From Candidatus Saccharimonadota bacterium (GTDB lineage: Bacteria > Patescibacteriota > Saccharimonadia > Saccharimonadales > 2-12-FULL-41-12): 45,541 nucleotides of DNA. Where the stretch lies: positions 1 through 45,541 of the forward strand of contig JALHOM010000002.1 in assembly GCA_022842995.1 (NCBI GenBank). Direction: 5' to 3'. The translations under genes were made by a program, and so were the position numbers. This document shows positions 1 through 9,652 of this stretch, one piece after another (the first letter of the stretch is position 1; every line of letters begins with the position of its first letter). The notes under the pieces were generated by a model. The model saw only the letters and a list, made by a program, of their open reading frames with translations, was not told where the DNA came from and searched no databases.

Positions 1-111
1 AGAAGGAGAAATCTTAAACTCTCCGCTAGTGACTCTCGACAGATTGAGCATATCTGTAACTATTCGAATAATGCGTTCAATGCCTGTCGCCGACCAGTTA
101 AGCATTTCCAC
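1..111 (-). other. -1 frame continuation of the histidine kinase DHp domain
   Basis: From position 111 down to the window edge the minus strand is open for 37 codons in the frame one base back from the kinase reading frame. The peptide contains NWSATGIERIIRIVTDMLN followed by LSRVTSGEF, which is the expected second half of a HisKA dimerisation domain. The zero-frame tail instead ends after a few unrelated residues at 60. The kinase was therefore once, or still is, read through in this frame, and its ATPase domain should lie beyond the left edge. Confidence 0.75.
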
Positions 112-1667
112 TTTTTTTCATTCCTCTCTTTTTGGCTCAGTAAGTCTAAAAATCCTCTCAGGGCAGTAAGCTGTGGCCGAATCTGATGAGCAGCCATGGA
201 TATCATCTCGTCCTTGCTTTTATTTATCGTCTTTAGGCGCGAATTCGTCTGGATTAGTTTTTTCGTTGCTTGATCCACCTCGATTTTCAAAGCATCGTTA
301 AACAATATAACTTTTTCGACATTAAGTGCGTTGGCTAATGCCAAACTTAGATTATTTGCAAAGATAGTAACCAGCTGGATATCAGTCTTACTGTAAAGTC
401 CGCCGTTACTCTTATGCCCCACTATTAGGTACCCATCCACCCCTGAAGCAGGCTTGGCGAGAGTTACGACTGCATCGATACCCTTGCTTTGAACGTATTC
501 GTCTTTTCCCCCATTCCAAAATCCTGAAACTCGCGTTAATTCACGGATATGCTCTAGGTCTTCATCGTTTATCTTAACCGATGAATTGAGTGATATGATT
601 TCGGGAGTAGTCTCTAAGTACGTAACTATGGCTAGGTATTCTGCGTTAATATATTGATTTAATTCATGAAGTGATTCTTGCGCGATGGAATGCACGCTAA
701 CCTCTTCTACGAATTTTTGATTAATACCAAGTATCGCGTCATCTATTGAGTAAAAATTTGTGCGAAAAACACCGTTTGCAACCTTTGAAAAGAATCTCCT
801 CAATCTATTAAATAGGCTGGAGACAATAACCACGAACAGCGCCAACATGGCCACATCCAGCAGCCCCAGATCTACGCCGCTCAGCCGTCGGAACCCCTCG
901 ACGGCCGATAATGCTGTTACGGCAACAACCAACGCCACCGAAAAGCCATACCCGACAACCCTAGCAGTAGCAAGCCTTACATCCAACAGCCTGCCTTTGA
1001 TTATCGAGTAAAAAGAAAAAACTACAAATAACGTAATTCCGATATAGGCAGAATTACCCATCATGAGGTTAATATCTTCCGAGTCGGATATCAGTGGAGT
1101 TACGAGATTAGAAATAAAGCCGATAATAAGCATAATAAAAGTAACAAAAAGTAAATTACTTAAACGTGCCCTTTGAATACCTACCGCTTTTTTATACGCA
1201 CGATAGATGATCGAAGTGGCGATTATTATCTGGGTTAATAACATAAGTCCATAAATGAAATATAAAGGACCGTATTCAATCACTGTTCGACCATCAATAA
1301 AATATATTCCTACGAATGGCTCAAAAAGAGTGAACAGCGACGCCGTACATGCCAGAATAAATATAGTAAGCGGTAGTTTTCCAACGGGCAAGATTCCCCG
1401 ACTACTCCCTCCTGAGGCACTTCGGGCCAGAACAAAATAAAGATACGGGATAAATGAGCCCACAAGGAAATCAAGATGGATAAGCTGAACCGAAATTGAA
1501 TAATCTTTATAGTTTGATCCAAAAAAATTCGCCATCATCCAAACTGAAACAGCAAATGCAAAATATGCATAAACTCGATTGATGTTGCTTCTTGAATTTC
1601 TGGCCAATGCAAAAAACCCCAGGAGCACACACATTGCACAGAGCAACATAACAATCAAAATAATCAT
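60..1667 (-). CDS. membrane sensor histidine kinase, 3' part displaced by a frameshift
   Basis: This is a sensor kinase. Residues 1-290 form about nine hydrophobic helices, the first seven resembling the 7TM N-terminal module of kinases. A GAF-like segment follows at about 310-455. The H-box lies near 485-500 (AAHQIRPQLTALRG), with the phosphoacceptor at His494. The zero frame stops at 60, just after the H-box helix, while the rest of the HisKA domain continues in the -1 frame to the left edge. No catalytic ATP-binding domain is inside the window. The GNAT-like gene lies immediately upstream and two OmpR-type regulators further upstream, so they are likely partners. The start is ATG at 1665-1667 with a weak AAGG upstream. 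Whether the frameshift is programmed, a real mutation or a sequence error is open. Confidence 0.85.
   Translation of the reverse strand: MIILIVMLLCAMCVLLGFFALARNSRSNINRVYAYFAFAVSVWMMANFFGSNYKDYSISVQLIHLDFLVGSFIPYLYFVLARSASGGSSRGILPVGKLPLTIFILACTASLFTLFEPFVGIYFIDGRTVIEYGPLYFIYGLMLLTQIIIATSIIYRAYKKAVGIQRARLSNLLFVTFIMLIIGFISNLVTPLISDSEDINLMMGNSAYIGITLFVVFSFYSIIKGRLLDVRLATARVVGYGFSVALVVAVTALSAVEGFRRLSGVDLGLLDVAMLALFVVIVSSLFNRLRRFFSKVANGVFRTNFYSIDDAILGINQKFVEEVSVHSIAQESLHELNQYINAEYLAIVTYLETTPEIISLNSSVKINDEDLEHIRELTRVSGFWNGGKDEYVQSKGIDAVVTLAKPASGVDGYLIVGHKSNGGLYSKTDIQLVTIFANNLSLALANALNVEKVILFNDALKIEVDQATKKLIQTNSRLKTINKSKDEMISMAAHQIRPQLTALRGFLDLLSQKERNEKKWKCLTGRRQALNALFE
109..119 (-). promoter_or_regulatory. 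A AAA AAG slippery heptamer at a frame change
   Basis: The codons GAA AAA AAG (kinase residues 517-519) contain A AAA AAG in the exact phase used for bacterial -1 frameshifting. A one-base backward slip makes the next codons GTG GAA ATG, which lead into the HisKA continuation. A purine stretch AGAGAGGA, resembling a Shine-Dalgarno sequence, lies about five bases upstream. Only a weak hairpin (GTC/GAC core) is visible downstream. The same seven-A run is also a classic place for an indel error. Confidence 0.6.
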
Positions 1668-1724: not shown

Positions 1725-3257
1725 TTAACTTTTTCGAGGATTGATAAATCTATTATATATGACACGTCGACTCCATAGTGTCGCAGCAAGGTCAGCGCCA
1801 ACAAAAACCATGGGCGCCAGCCAACTCGAAGGAGGTAGTGTCTTGATTGTATAACCAGCAATCACAGCATTTTGAGCAAGAGCGCATGAAAAATTTGTAT
1901 AAAATCCAAAATTGAATAGCTTTTGATTACCAATTTCGAATTCAGAATTTGTCTTCTTCAGTTCTGCGAAAGCCGCCCTAACCTTCAAAGGATTGAAGGT
2001 ATCGACTGTCTTCGAAAAAGAATACAAAGATAGTGCTGCGCCACCAATCCAGCCGGCTTCAAGCGCCCCAACAGCAACTAAAGTCCTCAACGACTCCCCG
2101 GACCAGAGGGCGTCCACCGTTTCCCCCGTCTGTCCAGACAGATGTACAATAACCGGACTCGCTACTACTAGACCAAGTGCAGCAAGAAGCTCTTTGTCCT
2201 TAAATTTACTTTTCTTCAGCCCTTCTTCTTTTACGGTAATTGCGTTTTGAGAATCTTGAGCATCATCCGAATCACCACAAATCCAATTGCTTACCTTAAG
2301 CGACCTAGAGCATGAATTTAATAATCCAGAATATGCGACTCTTCCAAGCGCTCCACAAAGCTTGAGTGGCTTTGGAACAGCGGACTCAAAAGATGCAACT
2401 GCACCAAAATTCATCGATTGAGGGTCCTGGTAGGCATCGGGCACCACCTTGATGATTTTACACCCGATTTTTTCAGCATTCCTTAAGACGGGATCCACGA
2501 CAACTTCTTTATCGCCCTGTGTTATTGTCTTCTCGGAATACTCAACTGCGAGATCAAGCAACGTTGCAGGACTCAAAGATTCTAAACATACTTCGTTTTC
2601 TCTGGACCAATTTATAACATACTTCTGCAAACCGGGCATCCGGAGAACAAAATAAGCATCTTTTTTAGACTGTATAACTTTTGACATAGCCGATACGAGC
2701 ATCATATTCTGGGCGTTGCGACTCGAGGCCTCGCCGACAGTCGTCAAGCTTGCAACATACAGGTATGCCCCACTTTCGTCATATGATTCCGACAGAGTAC
2801 CGTTATCGGTGGTTTCTTCCCAAGAAATAAAGTCCTGTGGCGGTTTGTTTGTTGGGAACATTGTAAGAAAGCCCATTATTTTACCAGCCTCATCGGTCAG
2901 CACATCCGTCCAACGAGGATCTAGTCTCTGGTATCGCTCTTTGAAGGTAGCGCCTACTGCCTCATACATCTCTTCACGGGTTGTAAATTGACTCCTGTAT
3001 ACCGCCCGGAACGCTCGCAGATCGGCCATAACTAGCCCCTCTAAATCAGGTTCTTCGTACTGCCTTAACCTAAATATTGGCGACTTAGCCGAAGGTCGTT
3101 CCGCAACTGGCACGCCCGAATGAACGTTGTGTCCATCAACTATCGGCTGGTATCCCGTCCGCCCAGAAAAATAGAAAGGTTCACGATTGTGTTGAGCGCC
3201 GCTCATTAACGAGCGAACATCCGCAACATCTCCTGACAATCGTTCAGGGGATGTCAT
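1725..3257 (-). CDS. GNAT-like acyltransferase-fold protein with C-terminal membrane domain
   Basis: The protein has 510 residues. After about 45 low-complexity residues, positions 45-260 read like a divergent GNAT/N-acyltransferase domain: an RLRQYEEPDLEGLV opening, a central IMGFLTMFP strand, and AYLYVASLTTVGEASSRNAQNMMLVSA-type sequence where the acyl-CoA loop would lie. Residues 340-505 contain about four hydrophobic segments, so the C-terminus is probably in the membrane. The ATG at 3255-3257 overlaps the TGA of a short leader ORF and has only a weak GGGG ribosome site, so translational coupling is likely. It ends 57 bases before the histidine kinase. The substrate is unknown; a signal synthase is possible but is only inference from the neighbours. 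Confidence 0.6.
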   Translation of the reverse strand: MTSPERLSGDVADVRSLMSGAQHNREPFYFSGRTGYQPIVDGHNVHSGVPVAERPSAKSPIFRLRQYEEPDLEGLVMADLRAFRAVYRSQFTTREEMYEAVGATFKERYQRLDPRWTDVLTDEAGKIMGFLTMFPTNKPPQDFISWEETTDNGTLSESYDESGAYLYVASLTTVGEASSRNAQNMMLVSAMSKVIQSKKDAYFVLRMPGLQKYVINWSRENEVCLESLSPATLLDLAVEYSEKTITQGDKEVVVDPVLRNAEKIGCKIIKVVPDAYQDPQSMNFGAVASFESAVPKPLKLCGALGRVAYSGLLNSCSRSLKVSNWICGDSDDAQDSQNAITVKEEGLKKSKFKDKELLAALGLVVASPVIVHLSGQTGETVDALWSGESLRTLVAVGALEAGWIGGAALSLYSFSKTVDTFNPLKVRAAFAELKKTNSEFEIGNQKLFNFGFYTNFSCALAQNAVIAGYTIKTLPPSSWLAPMVFVGADLAATLWSRRVIYNRFINPRKS

Positions 3258-3436: not shown

Positions 3437-4105
3437 TTAGACGATCTGATAGCCCGAGCCGTGACGAGTTTTTATCGTGTCAGTGCCATAAGGAGTATCT
3501 ATCTTTGAGCGCAAATTACGAATACACACATCGACACGATTACTGCTACTTCCTTTGCGTGTGCCTGACCACACATTTTGCAAAAGCTCTTCTCTTGAAA
3601 CTACGGTTCCCCTGCGATGCAGTAAATAGGCCAGAACATCAAACTCCTTGGGTCTGAGAACGACTTCATCGTCATCGATACGGACCGTTCGTGAATTAAT
3701 ATCAACCACCAATGACCCGAAGATAATAGTTGCTTTGGGAGTAGTACCAACTCTTCGCAGGAGAGCCTCCAGGCGCGCTTTAAGCTCTTCTATATGGAAC
3801 GGCTTAGTGAGGTAATCATCCCCACCCATACTCAAACCAGCTATCCTATCGGCATGTTCGTCTTTTGAAGACAAGAAAATTACCGGCACCGACTTGCCGG
3901 CTTTTCTGACCGCTTCGCAAATACTAAGCCCGTCCATCTTAGGCAAAATTACGTCCAAGACAACAACAGAATAATCTTCGGAGAGAATTTTATCCAAAGC
4001 CTCGCTGCCATCTGAGCTGATATCAACTACATGGCCACTCGTTCGAAGAGCTCTGGCAATATATTTCGCCAGAAGGTCTTCGTCTTCTACAAGGAGTATC
4101 TTCAC
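3437..4105 (-). CDS. OmpR/PhoB-family response regulator
   Basis: This is a two-domain transcriptional response regulator of normal length (222 aa). Receiver residues are intact: acidic pocket Glu7-Asp8, phosphoacceptor Asp51 (VVLDVILP), a switch Ser near 79 and Lys101 in the YLTKPF motif. A winged-helix DNA-binding domain occupies about 130-222 (LRPKEFDVLAYLLHRRG, then NRVDVCIRNLRSKI and GSGYQIV). The start is GTG at 4103-4105, giving MKILLVEDED; no strong ribosome site is visible. It has its own candidate promoter with an overlapping dyad and a terminator downstream, so it is probably a separate transcript from the GNAT-like gene. Confidence 0.93.
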   Translation of the reverse strand: MKILLVEDEDLLAKYIARALRTSGHVVDISSDGSEALDKILSEDYSVVVLDVILPKMDGLSICEAVRKAGKSVPVIFLSSKDEHADRIAGLSMGGDDYLTKPFHIEELKARLEALLRRVGTTPKATIIFGSLVVDINSRTVRIDDDEVVLRPKEFDVLAYLLHRRGTVVSREELLQNVWSGTRKGSSSNRVDVCIRNLRSKIDTPYGTDTIKTRHGSGYQIV

Positions 4106-4167
4106 GCTAACAGCTCATTTCACAAGCCCTTTGCAGGCACCGCATAGTCACACATGAGGTACGGTTT

Positions 4168-4211
4168 TAGTAATTATGGTATTACTATAACCAGAAAGTC
4201 ACCAAGTTCAA
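4168..4211 (-). promoter_or_regulatory. promoter with overlapping 20-bp dyad
   Basis: TTGAAC (4206-4211), 16 bases and TATAGT (4184-4189) form a plausible promoter for the 222-residue regulator. The dyad TAGTAAT-N6-ATTACTA (4168-4187) overlaps the -10 box and the expected start site, as an operator would. OmpR-type proteins usually bind direct repeats, so the binder is unknown. Confidence 0.45.
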
Positions 4212-4239
4212 TGATTTAAATCAATTACGCGGAAAAATT

Positions 4240-4902
4240 TCATGTTTCTTGCATAATTCGATAACCGGTTTTGGATATCGTCTTGATGCAATTCTTGCCG
4301 AATTTACGTCGTAGTTCCTTGACGCAGACATCTACACGATTGGAGGCGTTTTCCGAACTCACACCCCAGATATTACGAAACAGCTCGTCACGAGAGATAG
4401 CCCGCTCTTTATTGCGCATTAAATATGCCAAAACAGCAAACTCTTTGCTACGCAAATCCTTCTCGTCGTCTCCAAGCCACGCCCGATGCTCGGTGGTGCT
4501 GATCTTTATATTCCCTACTATCACGTGTTCATTAACAATAGATTGAGGCCTTCGATACAAGGCCCTGAGGCGTGCCTGAAGTTCCGGGAAACTAAAGGGT
4601 TTCGTCAAGTAATCGTCGGCACCAGCATCGAGACCATTAATTCGCGACTCTTCTGCTTCCATAGAAGTCAAAAAAAGTATCGGAGTTTGAACGCCGTATT
4701 CGCGCACTGCTTTACAGACTTCAACGCCATTTTTACCGGGAAGAAGAATATCCAAGATTATGACGTCATAACCTTTTAAGATAGCTTTTTCGTACGCCGT
4801 ATTGCCGTCGGCCGCATGATCCACCTCATGCCCAGCACTGGTAAGTGACAATTTTAAATATTCGGCTACGAGTTGTTCATCTTCGACGAGTAAGATTCTC
4901 AT
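4240..4902 (-). CDS. OmpR/PhoB-family response regulator (second)
   Basis: This is a second receiver plus winged-helix regulator. The start is set at ATG 4900-4902 (MRILLVEDEQ), matching the other regulator and the family. An upstream in-frame ATG at 4941 would add 13 atypical residues. Glu7-Asp8, Asp51 (IILDILLP), a switch Thr (FLTSME) and Lys in YLTKPF are all present. The winged helix covers about 125-220 (LRSKEFAVLAYLMRNK, NRVDVCVKELRRKF, TGYRIM). It lies about 90 bases after the HD-domain gene and upstream of the first regulator, so two regulators share the neighbourhood of one visible kinase. Confidence 0.93.
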   Translation of the reverse strand: MRILLVEDEQLVAEYLKLSLTSAGHEVDHAADGNTAYEKAILKGYDVIILDILLPGKNGVEVCKAVREYGVQTPILFLTSMEAEESRINGLDAGADDYLTKPFSFPELQARLRALYRRPQSIVNEHVIVGNIKISTTEHRAWLGDDEKDLRSKEFAVLAYLMRNKERAISRDELFRNIWGVSSENASNRVDVCVKELRRKFGKNCIKTISKTGYRIMQET

Positions 4903-4942
4903 ATTTATTTCATTATTTCCTGAATTCACCATAACAATCATT

Positions 4943-4952
4943 CCGCTAGCGG
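4943..4952. promoter_or_regulatory. 10-bp palindrome upstream of response regulator
   Basis: CCGCTAGCGG is a perfect 10-bp palindrome about 40 bases upstream of the regulator start chosen here. It may be an operator or may be chance. Confidence 0.2.
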
Positions 4953-4992
4953 TAAACGCTCTTTCCCTATTTTTTCATTTTTTTTACATATT

Positions 4993-5943
4993 TCATCGAA
5001 CACCAACGGCCAGCTGTTCATTTGGCATCGCAAGAGCTTCACGGATTGCCTGACGGCGTTTACCGACGGCTTTCGAAAATGCTTTCAATACACCGCTCTC
5101 ATCGCTCTGCTGTTCAAGTTGCTCCATGAGTTCTCTCATCATCACCCTCCCTTGATTAAACTCGAGTGTTTCACCAATAACTTCTTCGGCTACAGCCGAT
5201 GTTTGGTCGTCTAGATCAGGGATTGTTTCGTGAATAATACTCATAACCTCGTCTATTCCCCTGAAAGTAGTTGGGCGTCCTTCGCTCGCTAAGCGAGCCT
5301 TCAGGTACGGACGTTCCCCCGTCAGCGCAGAACCAATATCGGCCACTTTACTGAAATTCAGCAGTGCACGGGCTTTTTCATCCTTAATTAATTTAGGATC
5401 AAATCCATAGACCGGATGCGCTGCAATATCAGCGAGTTCTCCGGGGGTGTAGTAATCGTGGTGCGCGACAACGATATACCTCTGCATACCTTCAAGGAAA
5501 CGAAGAGCTTCAAAACTAAGATCCATGTCAGGATGACCGTATAAATCCATGTCAGGCGACATTGAGGTCATTAACAAACCTTGGAACGGGTGAGTCCTGA
5601 CAACCTGACGTGTTTCAGGTGTCAGGACTTCTTTGCTATCAAGAATATGGTCCATCCCGCTCTTTCCGACGTCATGCCGGATCGCACCATCCTCAATGGC
5701 TGCCCAATCGATAACTGTTTCGATGATATGACCACGTTCAAATAAAATCTCGGCCATAGCACGGGCATGCTTAAATACATCAACCGTATGTTCATAGGTT
5801 GAAGCGCCGATACCAGATCTATCTAATATCGCTAAGCTATTGGCGCGTACTAGTGCTAAGCCTTTTGGTACTTCTAAACCAAGGGCCGGATTAGAGCCAA
5901 TATCTTCAAATACTATTCCGTGTGGTCGTTCAAAACTCGACAT
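4993..5943 (-). CDS. HD-domain phosphohydrolase (HD-GYP-like, GYP motif absent)
   Basis: The 316 residues contain an HD-type metal site: His52, His90-Asp91 (IRHDVGK), His118 and His161-His162-Asp163 (VVAHHDYY). This ligand spacing resembles HD-GYP proteins, but the HHExxDGxGYP signature is replaced by HHDYYTPGEL, so cyclic-di-GMP hydrolysis cannot be assumed. Another phosphohydrolase activity or a signalling role is possible. No membrane segment or extra domain is visible. It lies directly upstream of the response regulator block, which suggests but does not prove a signalling function. The start is ATG at 5941-5943 with a weak GGA ribosome site. Confidence 0.75.
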   Translation of the reverse strand: MSSFERPHGIVFEDIGSNPALGLEVPKGLALVRANSLAILDRSGIGASTYEHTVDVFKHARAMAEILFERGHIIETVIDWAAIEDGAIRHDVGKSGMDHILDSKEVLTPETRQVVRTHPFQGLLMTSMSPDMDLYGHPDMDLSFEALRFLEGMQRYIVVAHHDYYTPGELADIAAHPVYGFDPKLIKDEKARALLNFSKVADIGSALTGERPYLKARLASEGRPTTFRGIDEVMSIIHETIPDLDDQTSAVAEEVIGETLEFNQGRVMMRELMEQLEQQSDESGVLKAFSKAVGKRRQAIREALAMPNEQLAVGVR

Positions 5944-6024: not shown

Positions 6025-6996
6025 TTACCGATTTGGCATAACAAAGAACAATACATAAGCAAAGCCGACCACTAACGCTACAATAAACGGCCAGAGTGGC
6101 TCCCGCCGTGTCTCGAGGTATCTGCCCAAAGTGGCCACCCCTGTCCTGCCTTCCGCACGCGGCAAACGATCATCTCTATATGTCAGAATATTATTTAGCA
6201 ATGTCTGCCTGATCTCATGAGCACTTTTTTGCATATCGTTTAGCTGACCCGGTCCATCCAATGCTATCGGGGCATAAAGCAAAAGCTGTTTACCATTAAT
6301 TTCAACGTCATAATTGGCTGCCGATATCAATGACTGCATAACCTCAGGGGTGATAAAACTCAATGAATCTATGGTGTATTCATTGGGAAAATACGTTTCA
6401 AAATATGTATCGAAGTTCCCTTCCAAGCTGTGTCTCTGATTTTGATCGAACTTCACTTTAAACTGATTTTTATGTGAGCTTTTCGCATCAAAGAGAACGT
6501 TAGGCAGCTCTCGAGGCAATCTAACGCTATACACTGCATAAAATACTCGCCTAGATTTGTAGGTGTAATACTTAGTCTTTGTATAGATACCATACTCATA
6601 ATCTACATAGTATTCTCCTTCAGCCGCCAGAATATTTGAGTACTTCACCCCTCCACCAGCTGGAAGCAGGCTTAATGACGACGACGAAATCTGACCGATC
6701 ACAGCAGCACCCGACCCTGATTGTCCGTAACTCCAGGCATTATTGATGGCATATTTCATAAAGTGTCTGCTGCGCGACCGAAGCATCAACTGCGTACGGA
6801 GCGGCAACAAAAATATAGAGGACGAGATGACTAATGCTGCAACAATCGCTAGCTCCTGCAATATTCTTGTGTCAGAACTCTCAGGCAAAGAATCTAACCC
6901 TAAAGATACTGCAAAATACGCGAGCAACACCACTATAAAAAAGAAGTGTAGAACACCCAGGAAAGTATATGCCGATTTTTTATAGTCGCGCTTCAT
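6025..6996 (-). CDS. membrane protein paired with the DUF4868 gene
   Basis: The protein has 323 residues, with two N-terminal membrane helices (about 10-32 and 47-65), a soluble region of about 230 residues and one C-terminal helix (about 300-318). The soluble part contains a LEGNFDTYFETYFPNEYTID segment followed by a SFITPEVMQSLI segment. This recalls DUF3137-like proteins from memory, but the assignment is weak. It begins 21 bases after the stop of the DUF4868 gene on the same strand, with little ribosome site of its own, so the two are probably co-transcribed. It does not resemble the short four-helix KwaA protein. Its function is unknown; a membrane sensor or anchor for the DUF4868 protein is inferred from context. 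Confidence 0.6.
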   Translation of the reverse strand: MKRDYKKSAYTFLGVLHFFFIVVLLAYFAVSLGLDSLPESSDTRILQELAIVAALVISSSIFLLPLRTQLMLRSRSRHFMKYAINNAWSYGQSGSGAAVIGQISSSSLSLLPAGGGVKYSNILAAEGEYYVDYEYGIYTKTKYYTYKSRRVFYAVYSVRLPRELPNVLFDAKSSHKNQFKVKFDQNQRHSLEGNFDTYFETYFPNEYTIDSLSFITPEVMQSLISAANYDVEINGKQLLLYAPIALDGPGQLNDMQKSAHEIRQTLLNNILTYRDDRLPRAEGRTGVATLGRYLETRREPLWPFIVALVVGFAYVLFFVMPNR

Positions 6997-7017
6997 TCAC
7001 AGCACCATCTAGTAATC

Positions 7018-8136
7018 TTACAATACTTCAGCAGAGTCAGATTCGATGACCTTCAGGGCTTTTTTGTTCATAATCTCATAGCGCAAGCCGGTCATAGGAG
7101 ATTCCACGTAGTCGTCGTTGAGCAAGTTCACGAATTTAGAGAGGTCTTTGTCGTCCATGATAATTATCGAACCAGAATCGTCTTGCATGAGATCAATTCC
7201 CATTTCTTCGGCGTGGTTCATGAGTTCGTCTTGCTTGACGAGCGTCGGGTCAATTTTTTGGAGTTTTTTGATGAGCGATTTTTTGCCTTCAACCAGACTA
7301 TTTAAGGTAACGCCGTCTTCAAAAACAAGAGCAAAATTAGCTTCAATCTCGGCGACTTTGGCCCGCGCAATAGCCGCCTCTTTCACGTCGTAACCGAAAA
7401 GTTGTTTTAATTTGGCTTGATTGAAGACGTATAAATCTTCATCCAGGAGCATTAATTGAGGGTCTGTCGGCATACGTACGGCGGCATCGGCATCGAACGG
7501 CACAAATTTACCGCTTTTTAGCATCCAACCCGTCTTGCCCTTCATAACACTACTACCCGGCAATACCTTAAAGACATAAAACGGCCGATCCGAACCCTGG
7601 TGCGAGACACGGGCCATCACGCCTTTAACGCGCTTAAAATCGTGTTCTTCATCAGAAAATATCGGGATTTCAGCGTACTGCGTCCTCAGCCACGTTAGAG
7701 TGTCTTGAAGTTTCGCGACATTTTTAACACGGGTTCGCTGCAGAACTTTGTGCTCGGCTTCGGCTTCCTCAAAAGAACGCACGATCAGCCCCACTTCTGC
7801 ACCCTCGAGCACATATTCTAAAATCTCATCTATAAATATCGGCTCCAGCTGTTTTGCCAGACTATCGCTCGTCGCAGTTTTATACAGCGTATAGTTTTTG
7901 CTAATAAAAAACAGTTCGATCTTTAGCTCGTCTTTGTACTGGACCAGATTATTTGCCCAAGCAAAGACATCAGACTCCTGATAAGAATCTTCCTTCTGGG
8001 CCGGAGCGGCTTCGGCGTCTGGGCTTTCGGGCTTATTTTCGGACACTTCAGATTCTGCGCCCGCCATATCAACCGATTCTTCGGCTTCAGCCACAGGAGC
8101 TTCTGTATTTTGTATAGGTTTTGTTTCGTCTTCCAT
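7018..8136 (-). CDS. DUF4868 (Kiwa KwaB-family) domain protein
   Basis: The protein has 372 residues. Residues 1-55 are acidic, rich in Glu, Ala and Pro, and probably disordered. The rest fits the DUF4868 family that includes KwaB of the Kiwa anti-phage system. Features include a lysine-rich loop before FDADAAVRMP, then DEDLYVFNQAKLKQLFGYD, and the C-terminal signature LLNDDYVESPMTGLRYE at about 338-354. The family is recognised from pattern memory, not a search. KwaB proteins act with a membrane partner; here the next gene, 21 bases downstream, encodes a different kind of membrane protein. The gene order (soluble first) and the acidic extension also differ from canonical Kiwa. A role in defence is inferred. 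Confidence 0.7.
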   Translation of the reverse strand: MEDETKPIQNTEAPVAEAEESVDMAGAESEVSENKPESPDAEAAPAQKEDSYQESDVFAWANNLVQYKDELKIELFFISKNYTLYKTATSDSLAKQLEPIFIDEILEYVLEGAEVGLIVRSFEEAEAEHKVLQRTRVKNVAKLQDTLTWLRTQYAEIPIFSDEEHDFKRVKGVMARVSHQGSDRPFYVFKVLPGSSVMKGKTGWMLKSGKFVPFDADAAVRMPTDPQLMLLDEDLYVFNQAKLKQLFGYDVKEAAIARAKVAEIEANFALVFEDGVTLNSLVEGKKSLIKKLQKIDPTLVKQDELMNHAEEMGIDLMQDDSGSIIIMDDKDLSKFVNLLNDDYVESPMTGLRYEIMNKKALKVIESDSAEVL

Positions 8137-8278: not shown

Positions 8279-9652
8279 TTATCTAAGGAGGTCGGCGATT
8301 TTTATGCGTTCTTGCTGGGTCGTGTCACGGTGGCGAATGGTGACCGTATCATCTTCTAGCGTGTCAAAGTCTATAACGACGCAGTACGGGGTTCCGATTT
8401 CATCTTGGCGACGGTAACGCTTACCAATATTGCCGTTGTCATCCCATTCACAAACGAATTTCCGGCTGAGCTCTTCGTAAACTTTGCGCGCCTTCTCTAC
8501 GAGCTCTGGCTTATTTTTTAGCAATGGGAAGACTGCGTACTTAACAGGAGCCAAATCTTCATGAAGCTTCAAAACGGTTCGCGTTTCACCGCCTTCAAGT
8601 TCTTCTACGGTATATGCGTCTGACATGACGGCCAAGAAGCATCGCCCCATTCCCATGGAGGTTTCCAAAATCCACGGAATATATTTTTCTTTGGTATATG
8701 GGTCTACATAGTTCAAATCAACGCCAGAAAACTTCATGTGCTGCGTCAAATCATAGTCTGTGCGGTCGTGTATACCCTCGATTTCGTCGAAACCATAAGA
8801 CGGGAAATTATACTCAACATCCCAGGCATCTGAGGCATAAAAAACTAGATTATCATGTTGCTTGAATCTTAAGTTTTCTTCTCGAATCCCGAGGCTCAGA
8901 TACCAGTTCCAACGGTCCTGTTTTATAGCTTCATAGGGTTCTTTATTCTCGTTAGGCTTAACAAAGTATTGCGTATCAGCCTGCTCTAATTCCCGCGTTC
9001 GGAACAAGAAATTACGTGGGCTGATTTCGTTTCTGAAGGCCTTACCTATCTGCGCAACACCAAATGGCACTTTAACGCGAGTAGTGTCGACAATATTTTT
9101 ATAGTTTAAATAAATACCTTGGCACGCTTCTCCTGGCAGATAAACTGGTCGCTCCCCTTTATCGGTAAAGTCACCCAGATTTGATTTGACCAACAAGTTA
9201 AATGCCTTAACCTGGCCAAAATCCTTTTCGCCACAATTTGAACATTTTATCTCTTGGCGATGCTCATCAAACAAAGAATTGAGCTCGGCTTCACTCATTT
9301 TTTCATCTGCAGCAACACCGATAGCCCCAAGTTCTTTATCGACTCGTATGCGGTGATTGCAGTTCCGGCATTCGGCCAAAGGATCTGAAAAACCGCCAAC
9401 GTGCCCCGATGCTTCCCAGACTTTCGGATGCTTAAACATGGCGCTATCTAAACCAACGTAATTTTCCTTACGATGAACGTTTGCTTGCCACCATGATTTC
9501 TTAATATTGTTTAGAAGTTCAACTCCATAAGGACCGTAGTCATAAAGACCGGCCTCGCCACCATAAATTTCTGAACCGGGGTATACAAATCCCCTTCTTT
9601 TACAAAGACTGATTATATCGTCCATGGAGACGTCTTTCGTTTGAGTGCTCAT
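8279..9652 (-). CDS. glyQS: glycyl-tRNA synthetase, single-chain class II type
   Basis: It charges tRNA-Gly with glycine. At 457 residues it is full length for the homodimeric GlyRS type found in Gram-positives, archaea and eukaryotes, not the alpha/beta heterotetramer. The N-terminus CKRRGFVYPGSEIYGGEAGL is diagnostic. Class II motifs appear around FRNEISPRNFLFRTRELEQ and the C-terminal GMGRCFLAVM. Two CxxC pairs (CRNCNHR and CSNCGEK) suggest a zinc site. A short anticodon-binding domain follows. It sits downstream of recO with its own candidate promoter about 130 bases upstream. The start is ATG at 9650-9652. Confidence 0.96.
   Translation of the reverse strand: MSTQTKDVSMDDIISLCKRRGFVYPGSEIYGGEAGLYDYGPYGVELLNNIKKSWWQANVHRKENYVGLDSAMFKHPKVWEASGHVGGFSDPLAECRNCNHRIRVDKELGAIGVAADEKMSEAELNSLFDEHRQEIKCSNCGEKDFGQVKAFNLLVKSNLGDFTDKGERPVYLPGEACQGIYLNYKNIVDTTRVKVPFGVAQIGKAFRNEISPRNFLFRTRELEQADTQYFVKPNENKEPYEAIKQDRWNWYLSLGIREENLRFKQHDNLVFYASDAWDVEYNFPSYGFDEIEGIHDRTDYDLTQHMKFSGVDLNYVDPYTKEKYIPWILETSMGMGRCFLAVMSDAYTVEELEGGETRTVLKLHEDLAPVKYAVFPLLKNKPELVEKARKVYEELSRKFVCEWDDNGNIGKRYRRQDEIGTPYCVVIDFDTLEDDTVTIRHRDTTQQERIKIADLLR

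What the first reader, a model, noticed from the sequence alone, without database searches (positions are those of the whole stretch)
6025..8136. KwaB-family (DUF4868) protein paired with an unrelated membrane protein: a Kiwa-like variant in a CPR genome
The 372-residue protein carries the DUF4868 C-terminal signature (LLNDDYxxSxxTGxxY). KwaB in Kiwa works with a membrane protein that senses phage attack. Here the partner has a 2+1 helix layout and a large soluble domain unlike KwaA, the order is reversed, and the KwaB-like protein has an acidic 55-residue extension. This could be a new two-gene defence or membrane-stress system, notable in an ultra-small host-dependent lineage.
Basis: partly seen in the sequence, partly recalled or inferred. 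Interest (0 to 1): 0.68.

Follow-up and report, generated by a model that had tools for sequence, protein, structure and literature searches.

The report
Stand-alone KwaB-family core gene in Saccharibacteria
A relative of the phage-defence protein KwaB sits here as an ordinary, parent-to-offspring inherited gene of a tiny parasitic bacterium, without its usual membrane partner, so it is probably a general DNA-handling protein and not half of a new two-gene defence system.

Summary
7018-8136(-) encodes a true KwaB-family (DUF4868/PF16162) protein, and 6025-6996(-), 21 bp downstream, a 2+1-TM membrane protein unrelated to KwaA. The partner is a divergent DUF3137-like protein. The 'Kiwa-like two-gene variant' reading is mostly not supported. 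In Saccharimonadales the KwaB-like gene is normally a single-copy orthologue: 154 of 294 sampled genomes of the order, 125 of 150 in one large family. It diverges about as slowly as neighbouring housekeeping genes and lies among housekeeping genes. KwaA is absent from this genome and appears in only 2 of 294. Those two genomes carry separate, overlapping kwaA-kwaB cassettes beside restriction genes and also keep the core KwaB-like gene, so bona fide Kiwa is something else here. The DUF3137-like gene is adjacent to the KwaB-like gene in 7 of the 154. That is above chance, recurrent and always on the same strand, but rare. A much commoner neighbour in the relatives is a PIF1-like helicase with an HRDC domain. 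The acidic N-terminal extension is a variable tail. Most likely this is a stand-alone DNA-binding protein that handles or restrains incoming DNA. That mechanism is inferred, not shown.

The parts
7018..8136 (-). KwaB-family (DUF4868, PF16162) protein, 372 aa; core Saccharibacterial orthologue
   Evidence: PF16162 43.1 bits; PADLOC KwaB 2.2e-15; orthologue in 154 of 294 order genomes
7972..8136 (-). N-terminal acidic, probably disordered tail (residues 1-55)
   Evidence: 17 acidic and 3 basic residues; length varies 6-160 in relatives; model pLDDT under 50
7090..7482 (-). stretch matching the PF16162 profile (positions 53-186 of 186)
7075..7125 (-). C-terminal motif LLNDDYVESPMTGLRYE shared with Kiwa KwaB (DDYxxSxxT)
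   Evidence: alignment A2 conserved columns; PDB KwaB alignment
6025..6996 (-). DUF3137-like membrane protein, 323 aa, 2+1 hydrophobic segments; occasional neighbour of the KwaB-like gene
   Evidence: hydropathy; family alignment A1; PF11335 in 2 of 6 family members; adjacency statistics
6172..6519 (-). most conserved soluble part of the partner (about residues 160-275, contains LEGNFDTYF...SLSFITPEVM)
   Evidence: alignment A1
8279..9652 (-). glycyl-tRNA synthetase, immediate upstream neighbour (housekeeping context)
   Evidence: tRNA-synt_2b and HGTP_anticodon; the name glycyl is recalled

Best explanation
A vertically inherited, KwaA-free KwaB-family protein that belongs to the core gene set of many Saccharibacteria. 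Shown: family membership, single copy in nearly all positive genomes, housekeeping surroundings in the window, divergence about as slow as neighbouring housekeeping proteins, and a separate set of true Kiwa cassettes in two relatives. Inferred: it is a soluble DNA-binding protein that works alone, like KwaB without KwaA, binding foreign or freshly imported DNA (phage, or DNA taken up by the competence or secretion machinery these bacteria carry) and holding it back from replication or transcription until it is processed, possibly with the PIF1-HRDC helicase encoded nearby in most relatives. The DUF3137-like membrane protein is an occasional local partner or a bystander in a reshuffling neighbourhood, not a required half of the system.
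For: Family identity. Distribution: 154 of 294 order genomes; 259 of 392 class genomes; 125 of 150 in family f34, 93 of 104 of the good genomes; 35 of 93 in f31. Among 286 genomes across the phylum, 15 are over the cut-off, all in this order. KwaA: 0 of 1 in its own genome, 2 of 294 in the order, none over the cut-off. Both KwaA genomes also carry the core copy and have overlapping kwaA-kwaB cassettes beside restriction genes. Mean pairwise identity 53.5% against 60.8% for GlyRS in the same pairs; PIF1-like helicase 57.0%, CofD/YvcK-like 54.8%, the RecO-like gene 46.1%, DUF3137-like 33.9%, each on its own set of pairs. In f31 the helicase is present in 35 of 35 KwaB-positive and 43 of 58 KwaB-negative genomes, and lies within 5 kb on the same strand in 29 of the 30 genomes where both are on one contig. 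Literature: KwaB binds injected DNA and blocks replication and late transcription without cutting it (PMC12904381, passages); KwaB is reported to act without KwaA (PMC11514479, passages citing another work); Saccharibacteria are naturally competent (PMC10633639, passages). No relative of either protein was found in viral contigs.
Against: No DNA-binding activity of this orthologue has been measured; its domain is net acidic (40 K/R, 53 D/E), although the G190 Kiwa KwaB is too (32, 49). The gene is missing from whole lineages of the order (f31: 58 of 93 without it; own family: 4 of 6 without it), so it is not essential to the lifestyle. Helicase linkage may be plain synteny: a PNPOx-like gene (30 of 60 loci) and GlyRS (25 of 60) also sit within 5 kb. 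No such helicase lies in this 45.5-kb window, and I did not search the rest of this genome for it. The structure model is poor.
Confidence: 0.45

Rival explanations
1. Fixed stand-alone phage defence: the core KwaB-like protein is a constitutive anti-phage effector, domesticated from Kiwa, that blocks replication of injected DNA without a membrane sensor.
For: Same family and C-terminal motif as KwaB; KwaA-independent activity of KwaB is reported (PMC11514479); the G190 Kiwa KwaB has its best matches among the core proteins (27% identity over 321 aa, E 4e-37), not among the other Kiwa KwaBs compared.
Against: High prevalence in f34, slow divergence and housekeeping context are unlike typical defence genes; two relatives kept the core gene while also holding Kiwa.
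Confidence: 0.25
2. Kiwa-like two-gene system as first read: the DUF3137-like protein anchors the KwaB-like protein at the membrane and replaces KwaA as sensor.
For: 21-bp spacing on the same strand; adjacency in 7 genomes, upstream in 4 and downstream in 3, always same strand, 13 within 5 kb; the near label is scattered on the partner tree (8 changes, 10.1 in shuffles, 57 of 500 as low), compatible with recurrent pairing.
Against: 147 of 154 KwaB-positive genomes lack an adjacent partner; most DUF3137-like copies lie elsewhere or in KwaB-free genomes; the neighbourhood reshuffles, and the PNPOx-like gene also sits on both sides (7 up, 4 down); the partner diverges much faster (33.9% against 55.1% in the 8 pairs compared).
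Confidence: 0.12
3. A KwaB-fold protein with an unrelated cellular role (for example RNA, nucleotide or envelope-stress control), with DNA binding lost.
For: Net acidic core; only 20-25% identity to Kiwa KwaBs such as that of Emticicia; presence of response regulators in the neighbourhood.
Against: Full-length family similarity and shared C-terminal motif; commonest recurring neighbour in relatives is a DNA helicase.
Confidence: 0.18

Closest known systems
KwaB of the Kiwa anti-phage system (DUF4868, PF16162, NF041623)
   Same: Same protein family along nearly the whole length, same C-terminal DDYxxSxxT motif
   Different: No KwaA in the genome, single-copy largely vertically inherited orthologue, housekeeping context, slow divergence, scores far below the NCBIfam equivalog cut-off (60 against 200 bits); note that the G190 Kiwa KwaB also misses it (65 bits)
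Kiwa cassettes of Saccharibacteria G190 and G229
   Same: KwaB-family protein next to a membrane-protein gene in the same order of bacteria
   Different: KwaA is recognisable, genes overlap, kwaA comes first, beside Vsr/type II helicase or type I restriction-like genes
DUF3137 (PF11335) membrane proteins
   Same: 2 of 6 members of the partner's family match the profile
   Different: The window protein itself has no match; only two papers in the library mention the family (listing only, not read)

Membership tests
KwaB protein family (PF16162) | Profile score above Pfam's curated cut-off | tested here: met
   43.1 bits against 26.3
KwaB protein family (PF16162) | NCBIfam equivalog cut-off for anti-phage KwaB (200 bits) | tested here: not met
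   60.1 bits; the KwaA-associated KwaB of G190 also fails with 65.4, so this cut-off does not discriminate here
Kiwa defence system | Adjacent kwaA | tested here: not met
   No KwaA in own genome; neighbour has no KwaA match in PADLOC or NCBIfam
Kiwa defence system | kwaA-kwaB order, overlapping genes | tested here: not met
   KwaB-like gene first, 21-bp gap; canonical order seen in Emticicia and an E. coli plasmid
Kiwa defence system | Patchy distribution in defence islands | tested here: not met
   Core-like distribution and housekeeping context
Kiwa defence system | KwaB binds phage DNA and protects | not testable with these tools
   Needs bench work
DUF3137 (partner) | PF11335 match above the cut-off | tested here: inconclusive
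   Window protein no match; 2 of 6 family members match, best 2.7e-6

The most novel reading that the evidence does not exclude
The KwaB family has a core, non-mobile branch in Saccharibacteria: a stand-alone DNA guardian that handles imported DNA in competent, host-dependent bacteria, representing either the housekeeping ancestor of the Kiwa effector or a fully domesticated immune effector, which in some lineages picks up a DUF3137-like membrane anchor in place of KwaA.
Probability: 0.25. Interest if true: 0.72.

Novelty: new variant of a known kind. Interest (0 to 1): 0.45.

Why it matters
Annotation pipelines may label this gene as Kiwa in many Saccharibacteria, which would inflate counts of defence systems in CPR bacteria. 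If the core branch has a housekeeping role, it gives a way to ask where the Kiwa effector came from and what KwaB does without KwaA. Saccharibacteria now have genetic tools (PMC10633639), so if a cultured strain carries the gene the question can be tested directly.

Tried and rejected
AlphaFold models of both proteins were poor (pLDDT 47.5 and 44.6): the alignments allowed for that tool were shallow (10 and 2 rows). I ran Foldseek on the KwaB-like model only and rely on it only for the ranking, not the geometry; the partner model was not searched. Viral contig searches for both proteins found nothing. The G190 Kiwa KwaB found nothing in plasmids. The tree with Kiwa KwaBs has very long branches (4-10) for the four Kiwa rows, which do not group together, so their placement is not used; on it f34 and f31 are clustered but not monophyletic (3 and 5 changes), so vertical inheritance is approximate and some transfer within the order is possible. 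NF041623's cut-off was dropped as a discriminator after a KwaA-associated copy failed it too. Promoter and terminator scans gave no more than chance (7 against 5.4 +/- 2.3; 3 against 2.0 +/- 1.6). The idea that neighbourhood alone proves the pair was rejected because other genes (PNPOx-like) also sit on both sides of the KwaB-like gene. Rows dropped or limited: alignment A2 uses 47 of the 60 KwaB-family rows, one of them the G190 Kiwa copy (L093); the tree uses 35 of 59 core rows plus 4 Kiwa; the partner tree uses the 30 copies that had loci, where 'far' includes copies on another contig whose true distance is unknown; L131 was a 200-base placeholder and not used. The 60 loci were chosen by me from the list (plus the second G190 copy and the window), not at random, and genes in them come from a simple longest-ORF caller.

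Full report
Observation. The 372-aa protein is a KwaB-family protein by Pfam, PADLOC and NCBIfam, by profile against PDB KwaB (E 0.0047 over profile positions 134-333 of 338; that profile contains one Kiwa row, L093; with the single sequence E is 0.06), and by Foldseek ranking of a poor model. The 323-aa neighbour has three hydrophobic segments and no database match of its own. Aligned with five homologues, two of the six members match DUF3137.

What the KwaB-like gene is. The genome is a 1.11-Mb assembly; the named records with its nearest relatives are Candidatus Saccharibacteria/Saccharimonadia. An orthologue occurs in 154 of 294 genomes of the order, 125 of 150 of one large family, 35 of 93 of another, and 2 of 6 of the window's own family. 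Positive genomes almost always hold one copy. Across 286 genomes of the phylum only 15 are over the cut-off, all in this order; two more are weak and below it. The gene is thus a lineage-wide, roughly vertically inherited gene, lost or absent in many branches. The tree is only partly congruent with family labels (f34 3 changes, f31 5). Mean pairwise identity (53.5%) is close to that of GlyRS (60.8%) in the same genome pairs; the other neighbours compared, each on its own set of pairs, are a PIF1-like helicase (57.0%), a CofD/YvcK-like protein (54.8%) and a RecO-like protein (46.1%) (the RecO and YvcK names are mine, from recall; Pfam calls the latter CofD). The window has GlyRS directly upstream; other genes of the window look like SecA, CTP synthase, RF2, LysRS and ProRS (recognised by eye), and I recognised no restriction or other defence gene in these ORF lists.

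True Kiwa is different. KwaA is absent from this genome and matches in 2 of 294 order genomes, both below the curated cut-off. In G190 and G229 these KwaA genes overlap a divergent KwaB, kwaA first, as in Emticicia and an E. coli plasmid, and sit beside Vsr and a type II helicase (G190) or what read as HsdR and HsdS (G229, recognised by eye). Both genomes also carry the core gene elsewhere. This is the cleanest control: Kiwa and the core KwaB-like gene coexist.

The pair. Of 131 partner-family matches in 95 of 294 genomes, 88 are in genomes whose KwaB place was entered; 7 lie within 1 kb and 13 within 5 kb of it, all on the same strand (the model is uniform placement in 0.95 Mb, related genomes not corrected). 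Two further genomes (G194, G284) have their KwaB place, on another contig than the partner. The profile was built from six KwaB-near copies; without those genomes, 2 of 80 and 7 of 80 (expected 0.34 and 1.0). On the partner tree the near copies are scattered (8 changes; shuffles 10.1; 57 of 500 as low), so adjacency has arisen or been lost repeatedly. It is not specific to this pair: among 60 loci (one of them the G190 Kiwa copy), immediate neighbours are the PIF1-like helicase in 15, the PNPOx-like gene in 11 (7 up, 4 down), a pilin-like gene (named by eye; no Pfam match) in 8 and the DUF3137-like gene in 5. So a weak, real, facultative association is the most that can be said.

The commoner association is with a PIF1-like helicase carrying an HRDC domain: within 5 kb in 38 of 60 loci. 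In family f31 it is in 35 of 35 KwaB-positive and 43 of 58 KwaB-negative genomes (Fisher P 7e-4, not corrected for descent); its reading frame is at least 480 codons in 35 of 35 positives and in 14 of the 43 negatives that have it; where both share a contig, 29 of 30 are within 5 kb and same-strand. No copy is in the window.

The acidic tail is 6 to 160 residues long in relatives (starts called mechanically) and often acidic, so it is an ordinary variable tail.

Mechanism. A review states that KwaA tetramers bind KwaB dimers, and that KwaB binds injected DNA and blocks replication and late transcription without cleavage (PMC12904381, passages). Another paper reports, citing others, that KwaB acts without KwaA (PMC11514479, passages). 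The original Kiwa structure paper was not held. From this I infer a stand-alone DNA-binding role; competence in Saccharibacteria (PMC10633639 and PMC11665869, passages) makes imported DNA a plausible substrate. None of this is shown for this protein.

Literature status. A search for DUF4868 found one paper, on treponemes (listing only); DUF3137 two (listing only); the 12 listed papers of the Kiwa with Saccharibacteria/Patescibacteria search have no mention of Kiwa (287 held at least two terms, 12 seen); two defence-system searches listed nothing on this gene by title or start of abstract. I therefore found no description of a core KwaB-like gene in Saccharibacteria, within those searches.

Verdict. 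Real KwaB homologue, correct anatomy; not a demonstrated two-gene Kiwa variant; best filed as a stand-alone core branch of the KwaB family.

Noticed in passing
L093:6483-7983 (G190) and L180:3832-5287 (G229): Bona fide Kiwa cassettes (kwaA-kwaB, overlapping) in two Saccharibacteria, beside Vsr/type II helicase and type I restriction-like genes; the G229 KwaB is very divergent (motif region reads SGRYYTSELTGEK).
   Followed up: partly
L072-L130, e.g. L073:6806-8332: PIF1-like helicase with a C-terminal HRDC domain is a frequent same-strand neighbour of the KwaB-like gene; in f31 all KwaB-positive genomes have the long form, most KwaB-negative ones with it a short form.
   Followed up: partly
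window 60-1667: 7TM histidine kinase reading frame that stops inside the HisKA domain close to the start of the contig; possibly a frameshift or a cut gene.
   Followed up: no
window 3437-5943: Two tandem OmpR-type response regulators next to a weak HD-domain protein (PF01966 below its cut-off), directly downstream of the finding.
   Followed up: no
window 1725-3257: 510-aa protein with no Pfam match, with an acetyltransferase-like N-terminal part by eye and a partly hydrophobic C-terminal half.
   Followed up: no
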